Assembly: GCF_016406105.1 (NCBI RefSeq)
Contig: NZ_CP066308.1
Location: forward strand, 2,329,501-2,393,500
Source of the DNA: Brevibacillus composti
GTDB lineage: Bacteria > Bacillota > Bacilli > Brevibacillales > Brevibacillaceae
Reading direction: 5' to 3'
Length of the DNA stretch: 64,000 nucleotides
Shown here: in pieces, positions 29,987 to 39,462 of the stretch
Numbering within the stretch: the stretch's first letter is position 1
How the letters are laid out: every line of letters starts with the position of its first letter
Notes under the pieces: generated by a model
Databases searched by the model: none
What the model saw: the letters and a program-made list of their open reading frames with translations, nothing else
What the model was told of the DNA's origin: nothing
Made by a program: the position numbers and the translations under genes

Positions 29987-30427
29987 TCAGAACTTGCCTT
30001 GGATACGGAAGACCATCTCGGCAAAAAGAGCCGCAAAGAGAAAAGTGCCGGTGTAGACGACAAGCGAGACGACCACAATCCGCCAGCTGAGCCGCTTGAA
30101 GCTCTCGATGTCTTTTCCCAGCGATAAACCGGCATAGGCGAGAATCGGCGTCGCCAAAGCCATGAAGTTTAATTTGCCGGTGACCTCGGCGAGCCAGGCG
30201 TTCCCGGGAAAAATCGGACTCGTCACGATCAGGGCGACCAGCGATATCCAGACGACCGCCGGACTTTTAAACGGCAGGATCGCCGCAATTCCCCAGCCGG
30301 CCAGCGTAATGGCAATAATGACGATGATGCCGGGAAGTGCCTCGATAGGGGAAACCTTGAAACCGATCCAGTTGCCGATGACCGCGATCAATCCGATGAG
30401 CGAGATAATGAGCAGTCTGTCTTTCAT
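29987..30427 (-). CDS. Small membrane protein partnered with DUF3100
   Basis: This is a 146-residue hydrophobic protein with about four TM segments and only short loops. The ATG overlaps the stop of the DUF3100 gene by four bases, so the two should be made together. The sequence (a glycine-rich GWGIAAILPFKSP region and LAYAGLSLGKDIESFKR) looks like one half of a secondary transporter whose other part is the DUF3100 protein. Function is unknown. Confidence 0.7.
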   Translation of the reverse strand: MKDRLLIISLIGLIAVIGNWIGFKVSPIEALPGIIVIIAITLAGWGIAAILPFKSPAVVWISLVALIVTSPIFPGNAWLAEVTGKLNFMALATPILAYAGLSLGKDIESFKRLSWRIVVVSLVVYTGTFLFAALFAEMVFRIQGKF

Positions 30428-31245
30428 GCGCTTCTCTCCTCCTCTTTTGCCGCAGGCGGATTTTTCCCGATGATCGGCGCGAGCCATTTATACAGCTTGA
30501 CGGTGACAGGCAGGGAGAAAAAGATGCAGATGTACGTGCCCAGTATCGTCGTCAGCAGGTTGGCCGCACCGGCAAAGACCGCGATATCCTTCTCGTAGTC
30601 GGGGAAAACGACGGCGAGCGCCCCGGAAGCGGCTGCCATCATGCTGCCTGAGCCGACGCCTGCTCCCATCGCCAAGGAGATCGGATGCAAAAAGCCCATG
30701 CTCCCGAGAAAACCGGCCAAGAGCGCCAGGTATATCGCCCCGAACAGCGTTCCGCATACATAGACCCCCAGCGCTCCTCTGCCTTCGGGTGAGTCAGCGC
30801 CGTATTTCTCGGAGATGATCGCCAGGTTCGGCTCCCGGTCGATCGAAAACGTCGCCCCGATCGATTCTCTGCCCATGCCCAGCCATAGAGCGATAGGCAA
30901 GCCCAGAATGATCGTGCCGATAAAATGGCCGACCTCTTGAAAGGCGAGCGACCAGCCGGCGTCAAAGATTTTCAGCAGAGAAGGACCCAGCATCGTCCCC
31001 AGCTTGGCGACGAACAGCATAAACGCTATGCCCAAAATCGTAGCCGCTTTTTTCATCTGGCCTTCGGTCAGCCAGCGAAATGACGGCCAGCTGATGACAC
31101 CCCCGAGTATCAAGACGTACAGCATGGGGAAGAGGGCCAGAACGCCAAAACCCAAATCGATCTTCCGGGACCCGATCAGCTCCCCGACGATCACCAGCAG
31201 CAGGACGATGCCATGCAGCTTCCAATCGCGCACACTCTCTCTCAT
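30424..31245 (-). CDS. DUF3100 family membrane protein, putative transporter
   Basis: This is a 273-residue polytopic protein with about eight TM segments. It starts at the ATG (31245) eight bases behind GAGG. The C-terminal half has a glycine/alanine/serine-rich TM stretch (MGAGVGSGSMMAAASGA), a feature seen in re-entrant regions of ion-coupled transporters. It is identified as DUF3100 from overall pattern. With its overlapping partner it may import the substrate of the dehydrogenases encoded just upstream (inference). Confidence 0.7.
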   Translation of the reverse strand: MRESVRDWKLHGIVLLLVIVGELIGSRKIDLGFGVLALFPMLYVLILGGVISWPSFRWLTEGQMKKAATILGIAFMLFVAKLGTMLGPSLLKIFDAGWSLAFQEVGHFIGTIILGLPIALWLGMGRESIGATFSIDREPNLAIISEKYGADSPEGRGALGVYVCGTLFGAIYLALLAGFLGSMGFLHPISLAMGAGVGSGSMMAAASGALAVVFPDYEKDIAVFAGAANLLTTILGTYICIFFSLPVTVKLYKWLAPIIGKNPPAAKEEERSA

Positions 31246-31296
31246 TGCGATCACCTCGAACTGTTAGTGGTAGAACTGGCAAATCCCTGGAAACGG

Positions 31297-31324
31297 GAAA
31301 AGCGTGTTCCCCGGGGGAAACACG
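31297..31324 (-). terminator. Terminator-like hairpin between the dehydrogenase and DUF3100 genes
   Basis: The stem CGTGTTTCCCC / GGGGAACACG (31303-31324, one mismatch) with CTTTT after it on the minus strand. The T run is short, so partial read-through into the DUF3100 pair is possible. Confidence 0.6.
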
Positions 31325-31331
31325 AACCCGA

Positions 31332-32222
31332 TTAACGCGCGATGCTGTCTTGTCCCAGTTGTTCGATGACCGTGCATACTGCCGAAGAATCCCACCTCCC
31401 TTTCCCCTGTGCCTTGGCAGCCTCGTACAGCTGCAACACCGTAGAACCAACCATGGACGGCACCTGGTGTTTGCGGGCGGTATTTTCGTACAGCTGCAAG
31501 TCCTTGTGCATATGATCAAGCGAAAAGATGGTTTCGCTGTACGTCCCGTACAAAATATTGGGGCCAAAGATGGCCAGGACGCGATTGTGGGCGGATCCTC
31601 TGTCGATTACGGAGGCTACCTTTTGCGGATCGACTCCCGCTTTGCGCGCGACCAGGAGCGCCTCCCCCAATGCGGCGGTGATGCTGGCGACGACCGAATT
31701 ATGGCACAGCTTGGCTACCTGCCCCGCGCCCGCGTCGCCGATGTGGATGATCTCCTTGCCGATGGCTTTCAGAAACGGCATCGCTGCTTCTAGCTGCTCG
31801 GACTCCCCGCCGACCATGATCGTGAGCGTGCCGGCCTCTGCTCCTGCCGGTCCGCCGCTTACGGGACAGTCAAAAAATTGAAAGCCGCGCGCTTTGGCCT
31901 CTTCGAACAGTTTGCGGGCTGTATTCGGATCGATTGTGCTGGTGTCAAACACCATGCTTCCTGGCTGCAGGGTCGCAAACAAACCGCGATCCCCCAGCAT
32001 GACCTCCCGGACGGTTTCCGGTCCAGGCAGAGACGTAAATACGATTTGCGCCTTCTCACCCACCTCGGCCGGGGATGATACCGTCTCGGCTCCCCGCTCT
32101 CTCGCCCATTCCATCGCTCCCGGAAACGCATCGTGCGCATAGACCCGGTATCCTTTTTGCAGCAGATTGGCGATCATTCCTTTGCCCATGACCCCGATCC
32201 CGATAAAACCGACATTCTTCAT
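31332..32222 (-). CDS. Beta-hydroxyacid dehydrogenase (3-hydroxyisobutyrate / tartronate semialdehyde reductase family)
   Basis: This 296-residue NAD(P)-dependent oxidoreductase has the Rossmann loop GFIGIGVMGKGM near residue 6, the substrate motif DCPVSGGPAGAEAGTL in the middle and the catalytic lysine K171 in GQVAKLCHN. The ATG at 32222 lies eight bases behind GGAGG. The family includes 3-hydroxyisobutyrate dehydrogenase, tartronate semialdehyde reductase and others; the exact substrate is not visible. An aldehyde dehydrogenase gene is 14 bases upstream, suggesting one catabolic pathway. Confidence 0.88.
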   Translation of the reverse strand: MKNVGFIGIGVMGKGMIANLLQKGYRVYAHDAFPGAMEWARERGAETVSSPAEVGEKAQIVFTSLPGPETVREVMLGDRGLFATLQPGSMVFDTSTIDPNTARKLFEEAKARGFQFFDCPVSGGPAGAEAGTLTIMVGGESEQLEAAMPFLKAIGKEIIHIGDAGAGQVAKLCHNSVVASITAALGEALLVARKAGVDPQKVASVIDRGSAHNRVLAIFGPNILYGTYSETIFSLDHMHKDLQLYENTARKHQVPSMVGSTVLQLYEAAKAQGKGRWDSSAVCTVIEQLGQDSIAR

Positions 32223-32236
32223 GAACTGCACCTCCC

Positions 32237-33688
32237 TTATGGGCGAATATAGACCGTCTTCAACTCCACGTAGAAATCCAGTGCGGATTCTCCCTGCTCA
32301 CGCGGCCCGAGGCCGGATATTTTCTTCCCGCCGAACGGGTAATGCGATTCAAAATGTGTGGATGGCATGTTGACATGCGTGACGCCGGACTGTATCCCCT
32401 TGACGAACTGGAAGGCTTTCTTCAGGTCGTTGGTAAAGATCGTCGAGGACAGGCCAAATTCTACCTGATTGGCCACCTCCATCGCCTCTTCGAAGCTGCC
32501 CGCATCGATCACGGCGATCACGGGTCCGAAAATTTCCTCTTGGGCGATCGTCATCTGCGGTGTCACGCCCGTAAAGACGGTAGGAGCCACGAAGTATCCG
32601 TCTTCCAGACCTCCGCCTTGGAGCCGCTTGCCTCCGCACTCCAGCTTCGCCCCTTCCTCAATCCCTTTTTGGACGTAGTGCAGATAGGTTCTCAGCTGAT
32701 GCTCGTCCGCCAGCGGACCGTTGACGCTGTTTGGATCGAAGCCGTCGCCTACGCGGATCGCCTCCGCCCGCGCGATCAGCTTTGCCTTCACCTCTGCGGC
32801 CACTTCCGGCAGGACGATTACGCGGCTGGTTCCGGTACAGCGCTGGCCGTTATCCAAAAATCCGCTCGTGACGATGCAGTCAATCGCCAGATCGATATCT
32901 GCGTCCGGCATGATGATCGCCGGGTTTTTGCCGCCCATCTCCGCCTGGATTTTTCCGCCACGGGCGCCGACCGCTTTCCCCAAAGCAAGTCCCACTTCGG
33001 ATGAGCCGGTAAACGAGATGCCTTTGATCAGCGGATTGCGGGTCAGCTCTTCCCCGATGACCGCTCCCGGACCGGTAACCAGATTGACGACGCCTGCGGG
33101 CACACCCGCCTCCACCAGCAACTCGACGAGCTTGACGCTGATCAGCGAGGTGTTGCTGGCCGGCTTAAAGACGACCGTATTCCCTGCAAGGATCGCCGGA
33201 ACGATTTTCCACAGTCCGATTCCCAAAGGAAAATTCCACGGAGCGATGATGGCAAAAACGCCAATCGGCTCCCGGACCGTATAGGCAAAGACCTGTTCAT
33301 CAAAGGACGGAAGCGTCTGGCCGCTCAATCGCGTAACCTCTCCCGTCAACTGCTTCATGGAGGCGATCGTCTTGTTCACTTCCCCTCTCGCTTCCTTCAG
33401 GGTTTTGCCGACCTCGCGAGTGATCGTCTCCGCTAATTCCTCCCGCTTCTCCTCCAGGAGTGTGATGAGCTTGTACAAAAATTCGCCGCGCAGCGGGGCC
33501 GCGACGCGGGACCAAGAGATAAATGACTCCGCAGCCGCTTCGATGGCATGGCGTGTATCGGCTGCATTTGATTTCTGGAAATAGCCAAGCACTTCCTGTG
33601 TCCGGGCAGGATTGATGCTGGGAAATACTTCTCCCGTCTGGCTGGGCACCCACTCTCCGTTGATGTAGTTGGCATAAGTTTGCGCCAT
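32237..33688 (-). CDS. NAD(P)-dependent aldehyde dehydrogenase
   Basis: This is a 483-residue ALDH superfamily enzyme with general base E250 in QAEMGGKNP and nucleophile C284 in GQRCTGTSR. The cofactor region APWNFP and the C-terminal PFGG motif are also present. The ATG is placed behind GGAGG. It resembles the 2,5-dioxovalerate / succinate semialdehyde branch, but this is a guess. It is the first gene of a minus-strand unit with the hydroxyacid dehydrogenase and probably the DUF3100 pair, and it is transcribed away from the PucR-like regulator. Confidence 0.9.
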   Translation of the reverse strand: MAQTYANYINGEWVPSQTGEVFPSINPARTQEVLGYFQKSNAADTRHAIEAAAESFISWSRVAAPLRGEFLYKLITLLEEKREELAETITREVGKTLKEARGEVNKTIASMKQLTGEVTRLSGQTLPSFDEQVFAYTVREPIGVFAIIAPWNFPLGIGLWKIVPAILAGNTVVFKPASNTSLISVKLVELLVEAGVPAGVVNLVTGPGAVIGEELTRNPLIKGISFTGSSEVGLALGKAVGARGGKIQAEMGGKNPAIIMPDADIDLAIDCIVTSGFLDNGQRCTGTSRVIVLPEVAAEVKAKLIARAEAIRVGDGFDPNSVNGPLADEHQLRTYLHYVQKGIEEGAKLECGGKRLQGGGLEDGYFVAPTVFTGVTPQMTIAQEEIFGPVIAVIDAGSFEEAMEVANQVEFGLSSTIFTNDLKKAFQFVKGIQSGVTHVNMPSTHFESHYPFGGKKISGLGPREQGESALDFYVELKTVYIRP

Positions 33689-33717
33689 TTGCTCCACCTC
33701 CCAAGTATTATGAGACA

Positions 33718-33746
33718 ATTGTATAAATTCATAATAGTTGGTACAA
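33718..33746 (-). promoter_or_regulatory. Predicted promoter of the aldehyde dehydrogenase operon
   Basis: On the minus strand TTGTAC (33746-33741) and TACAAT (33723-33718) are spaced by 17 bases. The region is AT-rich, contains a self-complementary ACAATTGT, and is shared with the divergent regulator. Confidence 0.55.
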
Positions 33747-33809
33747 TGTGTAAATATCCAAGGTTACGGCTAGACCTATGTAGAATTTCCCACTCGAGAG
33801 GAGGATTCC

Positions 33810-36002
33810 ATGCGTACGCTGCAGATGCTGCAAGCTTACTTGCAACAGACATGGTGCGGTGTGGAATTTGCCGTCTGGGTGAAAACAAGGAGAGACCGGC
33901 ACATGCGGCTGCTGATCAGTGCGGATGACGGTCTTTCAGGCAGGCCGGACGATTATATGCCTGCCTTTTTTCCGTCACTACCGTCCGCTCCGTCGTCATC
34001 GTCCAGCCTCCCTGCCGCCCGCTATGACGTGTTTGAAAAGCCGCCCGATACCTACATCCGGTATGTCCTGTCGACGGACAGCTCCGCGCTGGTGCGATTC
34101 CGGCCGAGCGAGCCTGATCAGCCGCTTGCGCTCACGGACGGCCCGCTGCATACCCTCGGCTTGTACCTCTGCCTTTTGGAGGCGGAAGAGACGATCGAGG
34201 CGAAGGACAAGGTGTTGACCAAGCTGATCGAAAGCACGCGCTCCATCGCCTCCTCGCTGGATATCGAGAGCGTCATCCACGATCTCATCCGCAATACTCT
34301 CACGGTCATCCCCGCAGCTGATGCCGGGCTGCTCCATCTGTACGATCCCGAGCTGGAGCGGCTCGTGCCCAAAGCGGCTGTCGGCTTCCGCGAGAGTGTG
34401 ATTCACCGCTTCCGCCTGCGGGTGGGCGAATCCATCGCGGGCAAAGTCTATCTGGACGGCAAGCCGCGCATCTTTCACACGCACAAAGAAATCCAGGCCG
34501 CGATGGCTGACCTGTCCATCGAAAACTATCAGCATCTGGATGACGCCAAAGAGCTGCGCCATCTGCACGGACTGATGTGCGTCCCGATTTCGCGCGGGGT
34601 GCAGCGCATCGGCGTACTGGTCATTCACCAGTTCCATCAGGAGAACGTCTTTTTGGAAAGCGATCTGCGCATCCTGCAGGACGTGGCCGATCTGACTGCG
34701 GTCGCCCTGGAAAATGCCCGTCTCTACGCCGATACCAAAGCGGCGCTGGAGCAAACCGCCAAATTGACCGAGGAGCTCAAAGCCAAACACGACGATCTGG
34801 TGAAACGGACGCAGATCCATGAAACGCTCAAACGGCTCTCACTCCGCAATAATGGGACGGAAGCCATCGCATCTGCTCTGGGCAACATGGTGGGCAAGCC
34901 GCTCCTCTTGATCGACTGGCTGGAACAGCGCCACTACCCGCCTCACTCCGAGCTGCGGGAGCTGTTCAGCTGGGACGAGCTCACGCTGCTTGTCAGCAGC
35001 CGCCTCCACCCTCGCTGGATCAGCGTCTCCGACAAAACTGCCGATGGATGGCCGGAACAGCCCTTTTCCGTATATATCTACCCGCTGGCAAACGGCTCCG
35101 TCTTCCTCGGCTGTCTGCTGATCCGCGCCGATTCGTGCACGCTATCCGATCTGGAGCGGATCACGATCGAGCAGGGAATTGCGATATTGGCTCTCGATCT
35201 GGTGAAGAAACAATCGCTCAGCTCTGTCTTCTACAAACGATCCCACGATCTTTTCCAGCACCTCCTCACCGCAAAAGGAGCCGAACTGTCCCATCAAGCG
35301 CAATCCATCGGTCTTATGCCCGGTGCCACGTATCTCTGTGTCCATGCCATGCTGCTCCGCTGCTACGACCTCGCCAAGCAAGAGGCACATATCCACCGGA
35401 TCGTCCATCGATGGAAGCAGCTTTTCAACGGATGGGAAGTGATTACCTACGGATTTCACAATCAGCTGACGATGTTGATCGAGGCAGCCAGCCATGCCCA
35501 TCCGCGTTCCTGCGCAGAGAAGCTGGGAGATTTCGCACGCGAATGGAATCAACAGGAGGACTGCCAGATCGCCATCGGAGTCGGGGGTGCCTACAGCGGG
35601 CTGGAGCAGATCGCCAAAAGCTTTGAGGAAGCAAAAAAAGCGGTCCAGTATCTTAACAACCGGAACCGCTTCGGGGTCGTGCGATATGGAGAACTGGGCG
35701 TCAATCAGCTCATGATCAATCAGACTGCAGAAGACATGGCTGCCTTCGTGAGAGATGTGTTTCGTCCGTTTTGGGAGAATCGGGCAAAATACGCGGAGTT
35801 GGAAAAAACCTTGCTCGTCTACATCCAATGCAGCCAGTCCGCGCAAGAGACCGCAAACGAGCTGCATATCCACATCAATACGCTCTACCAGCGGCTGCGC
35901 AAGATAGAAGCCCTGCTGAATATCGACTTCAAGCGGCCGGAGGATATGCTCAAAATTCAGTTGGCCTGCCATTTGCGGACCGAAGCCGCCGGCGCCCTCT
36001 AG
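33810..36002 (+). CDS. GAF-domain PucR/CdaR-type transcriptional regulator
   Basis: This is a 730-residue cytoplasmic regulator. The N-terminal 130 residues are unassigned with a serine-rich stretch. A GAF domain lies at about 145-305 (small-molecule sensing) and a short coiled coil follows. A CdaR-like GGDEF-related region comes next, and a PucR-type helix-turn-helix is at the C-terminus (HINTLYQRLRKIEALL). GAGGAGG precedes the ATG at 33810. Its divergent position next to the aldehyde dehydrogenase operon suggests that it activates that operon in response to the pathway substrate. Confidence 0.85.
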   Translation: MRTLQMLQAYLQQTWCGVEFAVWVKTRRDRHMRLLISADDGLSGRPDDYMPAFFPSLPSAPSSSSSLPAARYDVFEKPPDTYIRYVLSTDSSALVRFRPSEPDQPLALTDGPLHTLGLYLCLLEAEETIEAKDKVLTKLIESTRSIASSLDIESVIHDLIRNTLTVIPAADAGLLHLYDPELERLVPKAAVGFRESVIHRFRLRVGESIAGKVYLDGKPRIFHTHKEIQAAMADLSIENYQHLDDAKELRHLHGLMCVPISRGVQRIGVLVIHQFHQENVFLESDLRILQDVADLTAVALENARLYADTKAALEQTAKLTEELKAKHDDLVKRTQIHETLKRLSLRNNGTEAIASALGNMVGKPLLLIDWLEQRHYPPHSELRELFSWDELTLLVSSRLHPRWISVSDKTADGWPEQPFSVYIYPLANGSVFLGCLLIRADSCTLSDLERITIEQGIAILALDLVKKQSLSSVFYKRSHDLFQHLLTAKGAELSHQAQSIGLMPGATYLCVHAMLLRCYDLAKQEAHIHRIVHRWKQLFNGWEVITYGFHNQLTMLIEAASHAHPRSCAEKLGDFAREWNQQEDCQIAIGVGGAYSGLEQIAKSFEEAKKAVQYLNNRNRFGVVRYGELGVNQLMINQTAEDMAAFVRDVFRPFWENRAKYAELEKTLLVYIQCSQSAQETANELHIHINTLYQRLRKIEALLNIDFKRPEDMLKIQLACHLRTEAAGAL

Positions 36003-36034: not shown

Positions 36035-37935
36035 ATCGGGTAGGGGGCTACCCATTAGTTGAGTAGCCGACCTCCCACACCACCGTACGTACCGTTCGGT
36101 ATACGGCGGTTCCTTAGTTCACGCAGTCACTTGTCGATAATAATCTGAGAAGAAAAGAAATCCGAGGCCTTTAATGGTGTTGTTATCGAGGGCTTTCGCG
36201 AGGATGGGGCTATTGGAGATTCTCCAGTAGCTCTTTCTTGTATTTGCGTATTCCCATGCCTTGAACTTTGGGATTCCAAACGAGATCAGCTTTTCGAATT
36301 TTGTCCTTATTCGTTTCCATTGTTTCCAGTAGATCATTCGAATCCTTCTTCTCATCCATTCATCCGTTGTTTGGAGCAGGTTCTTCATATCCGCAATCTT
36401 GAAGTAGTTGACCCATCCCATGATATAGCGTCTGAGCCTTTCGGCTCTCTCTTCATTTCCCATGCCATTGCTTCTTGCGGTTAGTTCCTTCACTCTTGTT
36501 TTCATTTTGGCGATGGATTTGGGATGGATGCGGACTTTCACTTGCCCTCGTTGGTTGTAGAATGAGAATCCCAGAAACTTCACTCGAATGGCTAGGTCCA
36601 CCACGGTTTTCTCCCGATTTACTTTTAGGAACAGCTTCTTTTCAATGTAGGGGAGAATGTTGGTTAGTGTCCGTTCGGCACTTCGTCTGCTCTTGCAGAA
36701 GATGAGTAAATCATCTGCGTATCGCACAAACTTGTGTCCTCTCTTCTCCAGCTCCTTGTCCAACTCATTCAGCATGATATTACTGAGAATTGGACTCAGA
36801 TTCCCGCCCTGCGGTACGCCGACTTCTGTTTCCTCAAACTTGTGCTTCACGACAACTCCTGCCCGAAGATATTTATGAATTAGTGAAATGACTCGTCCGT
36901 CCTTAATCGTTCTTGAGAGTACTTCAATGAGCTTGCTTTGGTTGACGGTGTCAAAGTATTTCTCTAGATCCATATCCACAACATAGCGGTAGCCTTCCTG
37001 AATATATTGCTGGCTGCGCCTTATGGCTTGGTGGGCACTTCGTTTGGGTCGGAACCCGAAGCTGTTGTCCGAGAACTGTTGCTCATAGATCGGCGTGAGC
37101 ATTTGTGCAATTGCCTGCTGGATTACTCGATCAACCACCGTTGGGATGCCCAGGTTTCTTTTCTTTCCGTTCTCTTTTGGGATTTCTACCCTTCGAACGG
37201 GATTTGGGCGATATCTGCCCGCCAGGATTTGTTCCTTGATGGTTTCACCGTTTTCTTTGAGATATTGTAGAAGTTCATCTACGCCCATCCCGTCGATTCC
37301 GTGTGAACCTTTATTCGCTTTGACTCTTTTGAACGCTTCGTTCAAATTGTCTCTGCTTATGATTTTCTCAAGTAACCTTTCCTTCGACTCGTTTGCGTTG
37401 GTGTCGTCGGTTTCAGCTATCCTCTCAGGAACGTGCACTCCCGCATATCCTTCGTGTTCCGCACTATTCTTTTGCGGTGAGCCTTCCGTTGGAAGTTGGC
37501 TGCCCTTATCTCCTGTTTCGGTAACATTCATTGACGACCACCTCCTAAGGTTCAGCCCTTCCCTCAAGCCGTCGACTGCTCGAGGTACTATGGCGTCTGC
37601 TGACTTCTCATGATAAATCTTGTTTCAACCGTGATTCGAATGTCATCTTCTCACGTCCATGAGACCTCCCACGGTAAGACGACTCACTTTCCTCCCATAT
37701 ACCCGCATCATTTACACCGGAATGTCCGTGTAGTGTATTGGACTTTGCTTTGTCTCGCAAGCTTGTCCCATTCCATATGCCTGATGATGTTCGTGTTCCT
37801 CGGGCCGGGATTTTGCCTCCAGCTTCCTTCAGATTCCACCTCACGGTGGACACCCTTGCTCTTGGCTAGTGGTTGGCCACTACCAGCCCCCACAGCGGAC
37901 TTTCACCGCCTAGTTAGTCGCCATGCGTGGCGCAC
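36035..37935 (-). mobile_element. Group II intron, class IIC
   Basis: The 5' end on the minus strand is GTGCGCCACGCATGGCGAC, followed by conserved domain I text (AAGGGTGTCC, GGAATCTGAAGGAAGC, GAGGAACACGAAC, GACAAAGC). The reverse transcriptase is inside domain IV. Domain V (about 36080-36113) reads ACCGCCGTATACCGAACGGT and GTACGGTGGT, closely like the Oceanobacillus IIC intron. Domain VI (GGCTACTC..CTAAT..GGGTAGCC) holds the branch-point A. The 3' end is placed at AT (36035). It sits immediately after the T run of the FtsH-like gene terminator, the classic IIC target. It appears complete at about 1.9 kb. Confidence 0.9.
36119..37531 (-). CDS. ltrA: Group II intron reverse transcriptase/maturase
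   Basis: This 470-residue intron-encoded protein performs maturase-assisted splicing and reverse transcription for retrohoming. The RT core has GIDGMGVDE, the template motif GVPQGGNLSP and the catalytic YADD; an X/maturase domain with the RRYIMGWVNYF-type block follows. No endonuclease domain is seen after it, as expected for class IIC. The ATG of MNVTETG is nine bases behind AGGAGG. The reading frame is intact. Confidence 0.95.
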   Translation of the reverse strand: MNVTETGDKGSQLPTEGSPQKNSAEHEGYAGVHVPERIAETDDTNANESKERLLEKIISRDNLNEAFKRVKANKGSHGIDGMGVDELLQYLKENGETIKEQILAGRYRPNPVRRVEIPKENGKKRNLGIPTVVDRVIQQAIAQMLTPIYEQQFSDNSFGFRPKRSAHQAIRRSQQYIQEGYRYVVDMDLEKYFDTVNQSKLIEVLSRTIKDGRVISLIHKYLRAGVVVKHKFEETEVGVPQGGNLSPILSNIMLNELDKELEKRGHKFVRYADDLLIFCKSRRSAERTLTNILPYIEKKLFLKVNREKTVVDLAIRVKFLGFSFYNQRGQVKVRIHPKSIAKMKTRVKELTARSNGMGNEERAERLRRYIMGWVNYFKIADMKNLLQTTDEWMRRRIRMIYWKQWKRIRTKFEKLISFGIPKFKAWEYANTRKSYWRISNSPILAKALDNNTIKGLGFLFFSDYYRQVTA

Positions 37936-37968
37936 AAGAAAAAAGAGCCGGCATTATCCTGCCAGCTC
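37936..37968 (-). terminator. Terminator of the FtsH-like operon, intron target
   Basis: GAGCTGGC / GCCGGCTC pair (one G-U) around an 8-base loop and run into TTTTTTCTT on the minus strand. The FtsH-like stop codon TAA lies in the loop. The group II intron begins at the next base. Confidence 0.85.
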
Positions 37969-39462
37969 CTGTGTGGTGGGAGAATATTGTTTCAACAGGC
38001 TGCGGAATTCGTCCCCCTGCAGAACTTCCGCTTCCATCAGTGTCTCAAGGCCTTGCCGGAAGACGGGATCGTGCTTGCCCAGCAAATCGCGCGTCTTCTC
38101 CAGCAGCTCTTCCAGGAGGAAGTTTACTTCATCGTGGATGCGGTCCTTGGCGATATACCCCACATGGACGATGCCGAGGCGAGACATCCCGCTCTGCACG
38201 ATTTCCTGCGCCATGTTCAGCGCCTGCTCAAAGTCGTTTTTCGAGCCGGTGCTGCGGCCGCCGTAGTAGATTTCTTCCGCGACGGCTCCGCCGAGACAGA
38301 CCATGATCTGTTTTTCCAAAGCGTCCTTGGTATAGAGATAACGGTCTTCCATCGGATTTTGCCGCACGTACCCCAGCGCTTTGCCCCGCGGGCTCAGCGT
38401 CACCTGGGAGACCGATCCCGGGCGGACGATTTCGCTCATGATGGCATGGCCCAGTTCATGCAAGGCGACGCGTCTCTTTTCTTCGCCCGACGCTTCTCTG
38501 TCTACCTTTTCACCCAGCATCACCTTGTCTACAGCGTAGGCAAAATGGCGGGCTTCGATGCTCGCACTCTTTTCACGCATGGCGTAGATGGCTGCCTCAT
38601 TGGCAACGCTCTCCAGCTGTGCGCCGGAAAAGCCGAATGTCTCTTGGGCCACCTGCTCCAGCGAGACATCGGGCGCGAGCGGTTTATTTTTGGTATGGAT
38701 CGCGAGAATCTGCTCCCGCGCTGTCTTGTCCGGCAAATCGACGCTGATGTGCCGGTCAAAACGGCCCGGACGAAGCAGCGCCGCGTCCAGCATATCCTTC
38801 CGGTTGGTGGCCGCAATTATCAGAATGCGCGGCTTTTCACTCGTCCCAATCCCATCCATCTCGGTCAACAGCTGGTTCAGCGTCTGATCGTACTCGCGCT
38901 GCTGCTGTCCGTCTCGCTTTCCACCGATGACATCGATCTCGTCGATGAAAATGATCCCGCTGTCCTGCCCGTTTTTCTCTGCCAGCGCTTTGACCTCTTT
39001 AAACAGGTCGCGCACGCGCTGGGCACCAACCCCAACGTACATCTCGACGAATTGGGAGCCGGATGCAGCGACAAATGCGGAATTGGTATAGTTGGCGGCA
39101 GCTTTGGCCATCAGCGTTTTGCCCGTACCCGGAGGTCCTGTCAGCAGCACGCCTTTCAGCGGACGAATGCCGTATTGGGCGATCTGATCCTTGTGCTTCA
39201 GGAAATCGAGCGCTTCCATCAATTCGTTTTTGGCTCTTTCCTGCCCGCCGATCTCCGCAAACTGCACAGTCGATTTGGGGACGACGTGCTTTGCTTTCCC
39301 CTTGCCGCCGATAGACAGATTGCCCTGACCCTGGCGGTTGATCAGGAAAAAGAGCGCCGTCAGGACGACAGCAAAGACGATAAACGGCGTGATATTGATC
39401 CCCAGGAACAAGAGAAATACCAGCACTGCAGGGATGACACCGATCAGGATTTCTTTACCCAC
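37954..39462 (-). CDS. Compact FtsH-like membrane AAA+ metalloprotease
   Basis: This 502-residue ATP-dependent zinc protease has two N-terminal TM helices, at about 5-21 and 24-41, with almost nothing between them; the extracytoplasmic domain of normal FtsH (about 640 residues) is missing. The AAA+ module has Walker A GPPGTGKT (K115), Walker B IIFIDEID and RPGRFDRHI of the second region of homology. The peptidase site is HELGH (335-339), with a third ligand probably in SKNDFEQA. The GTG start overlaps the stop of the partner gene by eight bases. It is a paralogue of housekeeping FtsH. Confidence 0.88.
   Translation of the reverse strand: MGKEILIGVIPAVLVFLLFLGINITPFIVFAVVLTALFFLINRQGQGNLSIGGKGKAKHVVPKSTVQFAEIGGQERAKNELMEALDFLKHKDQIAQYGIRPLKGVLLTGPPGTGKTLMAKAAANYTNSAFVAASGSQFVEMYVGVGAQRVRDLFKEVKALAEKNGQDSGIIFIDEIDVIGGKRDGQQQREYDQTLNQLLTEMDGIGTSEKPRILIIAATNRKDMLDAALLRPGRFDRHISVDLPDKTAREQILAIHTKNKPLAPDVSLEQVAQETFGFSGAQLESVANEAAIYAMREKSASIEARHFAYAVDKVMLGEKVDREASGEEKRRVALHELGHAIMSEIVRPGSVSQVTLSPRGKALGYVRQNPMEDRYLYTKDALEKQIMVCLGGAVAEEIYYGGRSTGSKNDFEQALNMAQEIVQSGMSRLGIVHVGYIAKDRIHDEVNFLLEELLEKTRDLLGKHDPVFRQGLETLMEAEVLQGDEFRSLLKQYSPTTQELAG

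What the first reader, a model, noticed from the sequence alone, without database searches (positions are those of the whole stretch)
29987..36002. Uncharacterised catabolic locus: DUF3100 membrane pair, hydroxyacid and aldehyde dehydrogenases, GAF-PucR regulator
Two overlapping membrane genes (one DUF3100) follow a 3-hydroxyisobutyrate-family dehydrogenase and an aldehyde dehydrogenase. All lie opposite a divergent GAF/CdaR/PucR regulator. The combination suggests uptake of a small hydroxy acid or polyol, and its oxidation via a semialdehyde. The DUF3100 pair would be a two-subunit transporter with no assigned function.
Basis: inference. Interest (0 to 1): 0.6.

Follow-up and report, generated by a model that had tools for sequence, protein, structure and literature searches.

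The report
Two-part transporter of amide-salvage operons
Two overlapping membrane genes of unknown function look like the two halves of one small-molecule pump that bacteria often keep beside enzymes that split amides, and here beside two enzymes that would oxidise an alcohol to an acid, which narrows an unknown protein family to a few testable substrates.

Summary
At 29987-36002 lie a GAF/PucR-type regulator and, divergently, an aldehyde dehydrogenase, a 3-hydroxyisobutyrate-family dehydrogenase, DUF3100, and a small membrane gene that overlaps DUF3100 by 4 bases (likely start 30427, not 30487). New: (1) the small gene is next to or fused with DUF3100 in 84 of 84 loci (18 fused); a natural fusion folds confidently like CPA/AT-type elevator transporters (best solved match CitS, Z 15.2), the window's DUF3100 alone less well (Z 7.2). 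(2) The steadiest partner of DUF3100 is an M20 amidohydrolase (61 of 84 loci within 6 kb; about 0.07 expected); the two dehydrogenases are there in 27 of 84, mostly Pseudomonadota (13 of 17) and as other subfamilies. (3) Paralogues of the regulator sit beside M20 genes in 11 of 11 fetched loci. (4) The repeat ATTGTA-N18-TACAAT lies between regulator and enzymes in 12 of 12 genomes. Most likely a two-subunit organic-anion permease of amide-conjugate salvage, here tied to oxidation of a hydroxy acid. The window has no M20 gene, and substrate and direction are open.

The parts
33810..36002 (+). GAF + GGDEF-like + PucR-type HTH regulator (REG), 730 aa, divergent to the enzyme genes
   Evidence: Pfam GAF_2 E=1.6e-12, GGDEF_2 E=1.8e-12, HTH_30 E=2.8e-19; orthologue within about 2 kb of the dehydrogenase in 19 of 19 relatives that have the latter, by coordinates; paralogues beside M20 genes in 11 of 11 fetched loci
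33718..33747 (.). Conserved inverted repeat ATTGTA-N18-TACAAT between REG and ALDH, a candidate operator (the arm nearer to ALDH may double as a -10 box)
   Evidence: Exact, with spacing 18, in 12 of 12 REG-ALDH regions looked at; 25 sites in 12 genomes against 0 for the reversed-pattern control; two of the 25 lie at the start of REG paralogues
32237..33688 (-). Aldehyde dehydrogenase, 483 aa, nearest to alpha-ketoglutarate semialdehyde dehydrogenases but below that family's cut-off
   Evidence: PF00171 E=1.3e-163; NF042993 588 bits, cut-off 770; ATG and ribosome site; Cys284, Glu250
31332..32231 (-). 3-hydroxyisobutyrate dehydrogenase-family NAD(P) oxidoreductase (HIB), 299 aa
   Evidence: PF03446, PF14833 over cut-off; no NCBIfam model over its cut-off; closest solved chains 3cky, 1vpd
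30424..31254 (-). DUF3100 membrane protein, 276 aa, larger subunit of the predicted transporter
   Evidence: PF11299 E=7.6e-94; model of the window protein alone pLDDT 82.7, pTM 0.75; first 16 rows antiporters and CitS, best Z 7.2
29987..30427 (-). Small membrane protein, 146 aa, smaller subunit, ATGA overlap with DUF3100
   Evidence: Alignment of 38; next to or fused with DUF3100 in 84 of 84 loci; relative L117 matches Lys_export PF03956 over the cut-off, the window copy below it

Best explanation
DUF3100 and the small gene encode the two halves of one elevator-type permease of the CPA/AT kind. The family mostly works in gene groups that salvage amide conjugates (N-acyl amino acids and the like): the permease moves the organic anion, an M20 amidohydrolase splits it, and, where present, a HIBADH-family enzyme and an aldehyde dehydrogenase oxidise the hydroxyl of the hydroxy acid or hydroxy amino acid set free, via the semialdehyde, to a carboxylate. 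In this genome the permease stands with the two oxidising enzymes beside a GAF/PucR-type regulator whose paralogues stand beside M20 genes; the regulator would act on ATTGTA-N18-TACAAT. The hydrolase is not in the window, so either one elsewhere in the genome (21 M20 matches) feeds the pathway or the free hydroxy acid is taken up. Shown by computation: pairing and fusion, predicted fold, gene association, conserved repeat. Inferred: transport and its direction, substrate class, the order of the reactions, binding of the regulator to the repeat.
For: Pair in 84 of 84 loci, 18 fused. Natural fusion L115: pLDDT 91.4, pTM 0.89; best solved match CitS 5xat Z 15.2, 299 residues, 4.3 A, then NapA 13.3, SbtA 12.6, bile-acid symporter homologue 12.5; all 50 rows shown (of 392 with Z>=2) are transporters that I recall as CPA/AT-type. 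Window DUF3100 alone: best Z 7.2, 182 residues. M20 within 6 kb in 61 of 84, about 0.07 expected from the 21 M20 matches of the window's genome. HIB+ALDH in 27 of 84, 13 of 17 in Pseudomonadota, HIB 30-38% and ALDH 30-35% identical to the window's. Psychrobacillus soli L025 has the window-type group and, behind it, a regulator-like gene, M20, a DcuC-family permease and a second DUF3100 pair. REG paralogues beside M20 in 11 of 11 fetched loci, about five types; in the window's own genome a REG paralogue, an M20 gene and a divergent AbgT (PF03806 E=4.9e-205) lie side by side. Repeat in 12 of 12.
Against: No M20 gene in the 64-kb window. No exact repeat at the M20-DUF3100 loci of the same genus, so the two kinds of group do not share this control. 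In 15 of 19 genomes with the REG-ALDH-HIB trio it stands without DUF3100, which lies elsewhere, beside M20 in 13 of 13 fetched: trio and permease are separable. 13 of 84 loci have neither partner by my thresholds, though seven of these have other M20s or other hydrolases near. The HIB and ALDH of the two phyla are not the same subfamilies, so they need not share a substrate. Foldseek alone gave no match at E<=0.001; no PDB sequence relative was found; Z 7.2 for the window protein alone lies in the range that the tool calls common for helical proteins, and its lower score may partly reflect a poorer model. The one Pfam link of a small subunit is to an exporter family.
Confidence: 0.6

Rival explanations
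1. The permease takes up a free small hydroxy acid (3-hydroxypropionate, 3-hydroxyisobutyrate, 4-hydroxybutyrate, glycerate kind), oxidised via the semialdehyde; M20 neighbours elsewhere mark other substrates of other DUF3100 subfamilies.
For: No amidohydrolase of the M20 kind in the window; enzyme classes fit; trio and permease stand together in four genomes of the family and in two further Bacillota.
Against: DUF3100 stands within 6 kb of an M20 gene in 61 of 84 loci; 11 of 11 fetched REG paralogues stand beside M20; in Psychrobacillus soli both kinds of group lie in tandem.
Confidence: 0.2
2. The substrate is an N-acyl beta-hydroxy amino acid (N-acyl-serine or -threonine): M20 frees serine or threonine, which is then used by serine ammonia-lyase, by threonine dehydrogenase and glycine C-acetyltransferase, or by the HIB + ALDH pair. 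A specific form of the best explanation.
For: Annotated L-serine ammonia-lyase near DUF3100 in L085 and L087 and a relative of it in L150, two relatives 4-5 kb off in L105; annotated threonine/serine dehydratase and Rid in L093, a Rid relative in L105; annotated threonine 3-dehydrogenase and glycine C-acetyltransferase in L088, relatives of both in L107.
Against: Only these 7 of 84 loci; none in the window; that HIBADH-family enzymes act on serine is recalled, not tested.
Confidence: 0.2
3. The pair is an exporter (LysO manner) that sheds an amino acid or acid product, not an importer.
For: Small subunit of L117 matches Lys_export PF03956 over the cut-off; LysO exports lysine (PMC8498466, passages seen); three Psychrobacillus loci (L025, L029, L035) hold a second permease, of the DcuC family in the one scanned, beside the pair.
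Against: Many loci hold just M20 and the pair, where an importer gives the hydrolase a purpose (inference); AbgT beside M20 is an importer (PMC5082436, passages seen); PftAB, a two-gene transporter of like build, is a facilitated transporter of pyruvate (PMC5626966, abstract seen).
Confidence: 0.2
4. Chance neighbourhood: genes with unrelated tasks.
For: The trio occurs without DUF3100 in 15 of 19 genomes that have it.
Against: The same partners recur in distant groups, with 0.01 (HIB) to 0.07 (M20) expected per locus from the counts of this genome; on the DUF3100 tree the labels need fewer changes than any of 200 shuffles, and enzyme-bearing rows lie in three separate starred clades.
Confidence: 0.03

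Closest known systems
E. coli abg region (AbgA/AbgB hydrolase + AbgT permease)
   Same: A permease for an N-acyl amino acid goes with M20-type hydrolase genes; AbgT imports p-aminobenzoyl-glutamate (PMC5082436, passages seen; that AbgA/B are M20 proteins is recalled). The window's genome has REG paralogue, M20 and AbgT side by side.
   Different: The permease is the DUF3100 pair, not AbgT; in the window the hydrolase is absent and two dehydrogenases stand there.
LrgAB / CidAB / PftAB two-gene transporters
   Same: Large membrane subunit with a small helper, apart or fused; a reentrant-helix-reentrant fold is described for LrgB and LysB with a short partner (PMC8396727, section 9 read).
   Different: No Pfam match of either window protein to LrgA or LrgB among families with E<=1; neighbours differ.
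LysO (Lys_export, PF03956)
   Same: Listed in the CPA/AT clan (PMC8396727, passages seen); one small subunit (L117) over the Pfam cut-off, window copy weak (17 bits, cut-off 23.8).
   Different: hhalign of 38 small subunits against the single E. coli LysO sequence finds nothing; LysO exports lysine.
CitS (2-hydroxycarboxylate transporter family)
   Same: Best solved structural match of the natural fusion, Z 15.2, 299 residues, 4.3 A.
   Different: 15% identity; single chain; no sequence match.

Membership tests
DUF3100 (PF11299) | profile match over the curated cut-off | tested here: met
   314 bits against 27
CPA/AT-type elevator transporters | the fold, over the whole pair | tested here: met
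   on a predicted model of the natural fusion L115 (its DUF3100 part 48% identical to the window's): Z 15.2 to CitS, 13.3 to NapA; the window's DUF3100 alone gives Z 7.2; the window's pair itself was not modelled as a complex
CPA/AT-type elevator transporters | sequence match to a member family over its cut-off | tested here: inconclusive
   window proteins none over cut-off; small subunit L117 over the Lys_export cut-off; no PDB sequence relative
CPA/AT-type elevator transporters | transport activity | not testable with these tools
   needs an uptake assay
LysO / Lys_export (PF03956) | profile match over cut-off by the window protein | tested here: not met
   17 bits, cut-off 23.8
LrgAB | LrgA or LrgB profile match | tested here: not met
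   not among families with E<=1 for either window protein
3-hydroxyisobutyrate dehydrogenase (TIGR01692 equivalog) | score over the equivalog cut-off | tested here: not met
   232 bits, cut-off 291.6; the superfamily domains are met
alpha-ketoglutarate semialdehyde dehydrogenase (NF042993) | score over the equivalog cut-off | tested here: not met
   588 bits, cut-off 770; Cys and Glu of the catalytic motifs present
PucR/CdaR-type regulators | C-terminal HTH_30 and GGDEF-like domain | tested here: met
abg-type amide salvage group | M20 hydrolase beside the permease | tested here: not met
   no M20 in the 64-kb window; only its relatives have it

The most novel reading that the evidence does not exclude
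The DUF3100 pair, M20 hydrolase, HIBADH-family enzyme and aldehyde dehydrogenase together are the long-missing genes for pantothenate breakdown: the pair takes up pantothenate, the M20 enzyme is a pantothenase, HIB is pantoate 4-dehydrogenase and ALDH is dehydropantoate dehydrogenase. The three reactions match the three enzyme classes in order (pathway recalled, not from a call), and PMC10393543 (passages seen) says that the protein behind pantothenase is currently unknown. I noticed no dimethylmalate dehydrogenase among the annotated neighbours but did not search for one; its absence would speak against a full pathway.
Probability: 0.07. Interest if true: 0.8.

Novelty: new variant of a known kind. 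Interest (0 to 1): 0.5.

Why it matters
DUF3100 has no assigned function, and no paper in the held library names it. The results turn it into half of a two-gene permease with a predicted fold, a small set of enzyme partners that recur across phyla, and a regulator family with a proposed operator and a link of its own to M20 amidohydrolases. Substrate tests shrink to a short panel, and one candidate (pantothenate) would settle an orphan pathway.

Tried and rejected
A shared regulon of the trio and the M20-DUF3100 loci within the genus: rejected, no exact repeat at the M20-DUF3100 loci. Assigning a substrate from NCBIfam: none of the HIB, ALDH and M20 proteins scanned passed an equivalog cut-off; the four M20 proteins pass only the broad amidohydrolase subfamily TIGR01891. 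Profile comparison with E. coli LysO: nothing. PDB sequence relatives of either membrane protein: none credible. Recurrent neighbours of some Pseudomonadota loci (ETF-QO, TPR, IspE, RecG, OxyR-like) look like chromosomal flanks, no pathway hint. The 399-aa membrane protein beside REG paralogues shows no DUF3100 or small-subunit match. Papers on DUF3100, pantothenate breakdown and M20 operons gave nothing on this system. Foldseek alone gave no confident match; the structural claim rests on VIA-align. The simple promoter scan found no excess over shuffles (3, mean 3.1). The DUF3100 tree (83 rows) has long branches (L117, L091, L096, L118, L109) whose places are unsure. M20 genes were not sought systematically at the trio-only loci.

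Rows dropped before counts: the truncated DUF3100 of the own genome (L002, L055) was not counted in the 84; two of 22 genus/family genomes with DUF3100 (G004, G006) and 9 of 29 Bacillota-sample genomes were not fetched with flanks; 17 of 70 plasmid records were taken from the 40 listed, leaning to annotated ones; the Pseudomonadota set is 17 of 17 matches among 398 genomes, one of them (L034/G453) the seed of that search; one of 12 REG-paralogue loci (G009:C34) was not fetched. Two over-long fused reading frames (L145, L151) were left out of the tree. An earlier count gave 17 of 25 same-genus genomes with DUF3100; the table shows 19 of 25.
Full report
Observation. Minus strand: aldehyde dehydrogenase (ALDH) 33688-32237, HIBADH-family dehydrogenase (HIB) 32231-31332, DUF3100 31254-30424, small membrane gene 30427-29987; plus strand: regulator (REG) 33810-36002. 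The small gene most likely begins at the ATG that overlaps the DUF3100 stop by four bases, as in its nine closest relatives. The simple promoter scan found no excess over shuffles (3 found, mean 3.1).

The pair is one transporter. In 84 DUF3100 loci from five sets (20 genus/family with the window, 10 other named Bacillota, 20 sampled Bacillota, 17 Pseudomonadota, 17 plasmids) the small gene is adjacent or fused in 84 and fused in 18 (first seen). A natural fusion, L115, 433 aa, in a 69-row alignment gave an AlphaFold2 model of pLDDT 91.4 and pTM 0.89. VIA-align over the Foldseek shortlist put CitS first (5xat, Z 15.2, 299 residues, 4.3 A), then NapA (13.3), SbtA (12.6) and the bile-acid symporter homologue (12.5); the 50 rows shown, of 392 with Z>=2, are transporters that I recall as CPA/AT-type. 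Foldseek by itself was weak (5a1s, E 3e-3, prob 0.96, with MFS transporters among the next rows). The window's DUF3100 alone was modelled less well (pLDDT 82.7, pTM 0.75) and reached Z 7.2 (NHA2, 182 residues), its first 16 rows antiporters and CitS. That fits a small protein which completes the fold, but the drop may partly come from the poorer model, and the tool warns that such Z values are common for helical proteins. In DUF3100 two broken helices (130-151, 191-216) flank a long one (156-186) around the motifs R129-E130, R140-E141 and G201-S202-x-S204-M205, which are invariant in 36 rows. This resembles the reentrant-helix-reentrant build described for LrgB and LysB with their short partners (PMC8396727, section 9 read); that step is my inference from the helix list.

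Partners of DUF3100. Home-made profiles over the loci gave, within 6 kb: M20 amidohydrolase in 61 of 84 (16 of 20, 6 of 10, 16 of 20, 11 of 17, 12 of 17 in the order of sets above); HIB plus ALDH in 27 of 84 (4, 2, 0, 13, 8); all three in 17; neither in 13. In L044 the M20 lies 5.8 kb off. The window's genome holds 21 M20 and 4 PF14833 matches, so about 0.07 and 0.01 would be expected per locus; other genomes may differ, and loci within a set are not independent. Of the 13 without either, L099 has an M20 cut by a contig end and a second one of another subfamily, L117 one of that subfamily, L110 and L112 an Amidohydro_1 enzyme, L147 a C-N hydrolase, L093 an AstE/AspA enzyme and L034 an isochorismatase-type enzyme close by. 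In the other six (L027, L028, L031, L038, L092, L095) I recognised none next to the pair; L095 has an annotated agmatinase about 3.4 kb off, and L027 lies behind genes that look like a meta-cleavage pathway (names recalled).

Two lineages. The HIB and ALDH proteins beside DUF3100 in Pseudomonadota are only 30-38% and 30-35% identical to the window's. The two pairs scanned (L086, L097) score best with HIBADH and betaine-aldehyde dehydrogenase models, the window's with tartronate semialdehyde reductase and ketoglutarate semialdehyde dehydrogenase models; none passed an equivalog cut-off. On the DUF3100 tree (83 rows) enzyme-bearing rows fall in the starred clade of the window and in two separate starred clades of Pseudomonadota. 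So the same two reaction classes, as different subfamilies, go with the same permease; that they share one substrate is not shown.

The regulator. HIB at E<=1e-60 is found in 19 of 79 genomes, and in 19 of these 19 a REG orthologue lies within about 2 kb by coordinates. In 4 of the 19 DUF3100 follows (G000, G008, G032, G035). In the other 15 it lies elsewhere in the genome, beside M20 in 13 of 13 fetched. Of eight trio-only loci fetched, five keep the thioredoxin-like and LysM/GH18 genes downstream that also follow the window's group. The 12 lower-scoring REG matches are paralogues; 11 were fetched and 11 have an M20 gene within 1.5 kb, of two M20 subfamilies. In five a transporter-like gene lies between (MFS_1 in L217, the one scanned). 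In the window's own genome (L214) the M20 gene lies behind the REG paralogue and AbgT is divergent to it. The 11 loci fall in about five types, so five is the fairer count.

Operator. ATTGTA-N18-TACAAT lies exactly once in each of 12 REG-ALDH loci looked at (window 33718-33747). Genome-wide there are 25 sites in these 12 genomes and none for the reversed control: 12 at the trio; 10 at a second place, six of which were fetched and lie beside an EamA-like gene (L206 scanned, the others by likeness); two at the start of REG paralogues beside the transporter-like and M20 genes; one unexplained. No site was found at the other nine REG-paralogue loci. The genomes are close kin, and the arm nearer to ALDH also looks like a -10 box, so part of the conservation may be descent or promoter.

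Reading. Permease and M20, REG family and M20, and permease with HIB and ALDH are linked pairwise, and AbgT stands beside M20 and a REG paralogue in this genome. This is why I prefer salvage of an amide conjugate, with the dehydrogenase pair oxidising the freed hydroxy compound. Against it stand the missing hydrolase in the window and the separability of trio and permease. Serine- or threonine-degrading neighbours in 7 of 84 loci point to beta-hydroxy amino acids; pantothenate is the boldest candidate (PMC10393543, passages seen). Direction of transport is open.

Literature. DUF3100 and PF11299 gave no paper. Seen: PMC8396727 (passages and section 9), PMC8498466 (passages), PMC5082436 (passages), PMC5626966 (abstract and outline), PMC10393543 (passages).

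Noticed in passing
36119-37850 (-): Group II intron with reverse transcriptase/maturase (RVT_1, GIIM) and catalytic RNA domains; its reading frame ends 117 bases past the regulator's stop.
   Followed up: partly
37954-39462 (-): FtsH-like AAA + M41 protease, 502 aa.
   Followed up: no
L002/L055 (G000:C1:794931-795329): A second, truncated DUF3100 (profile positions 103-235) that abuts a glutamine synthetase-like gene; perhaps a remnant of the M20-type copy.
   Followed up: partly
L054 (G035): DUF3100 lies in two overlapping frames, a frameshift or a sequencing error, beside an open trio and small gene.
   Followed up: no
L206-L209, L212, L213: A second conserved ATTGTA-N18-TACAAT site between an EamA-like gene and a RarD-like gene (names partly recalled) in 6 of 6 fetched genomes, with longer matching arms; regulator unknown.
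   Followed up: partly
L215:11200-12399, L216:11356-12555, L218:4937-6136: 399-aa membrane protein behind an M20 gene and a REG paralogue; no Pfam match for the copy scanned (L215); possibly another permease of the same trade.
   Followed up: partly
L214 (G000:C1:740000-758000): REG paralogue, M20 and divergent AbgT side by side in the window's own genome.
   Followed up: yes
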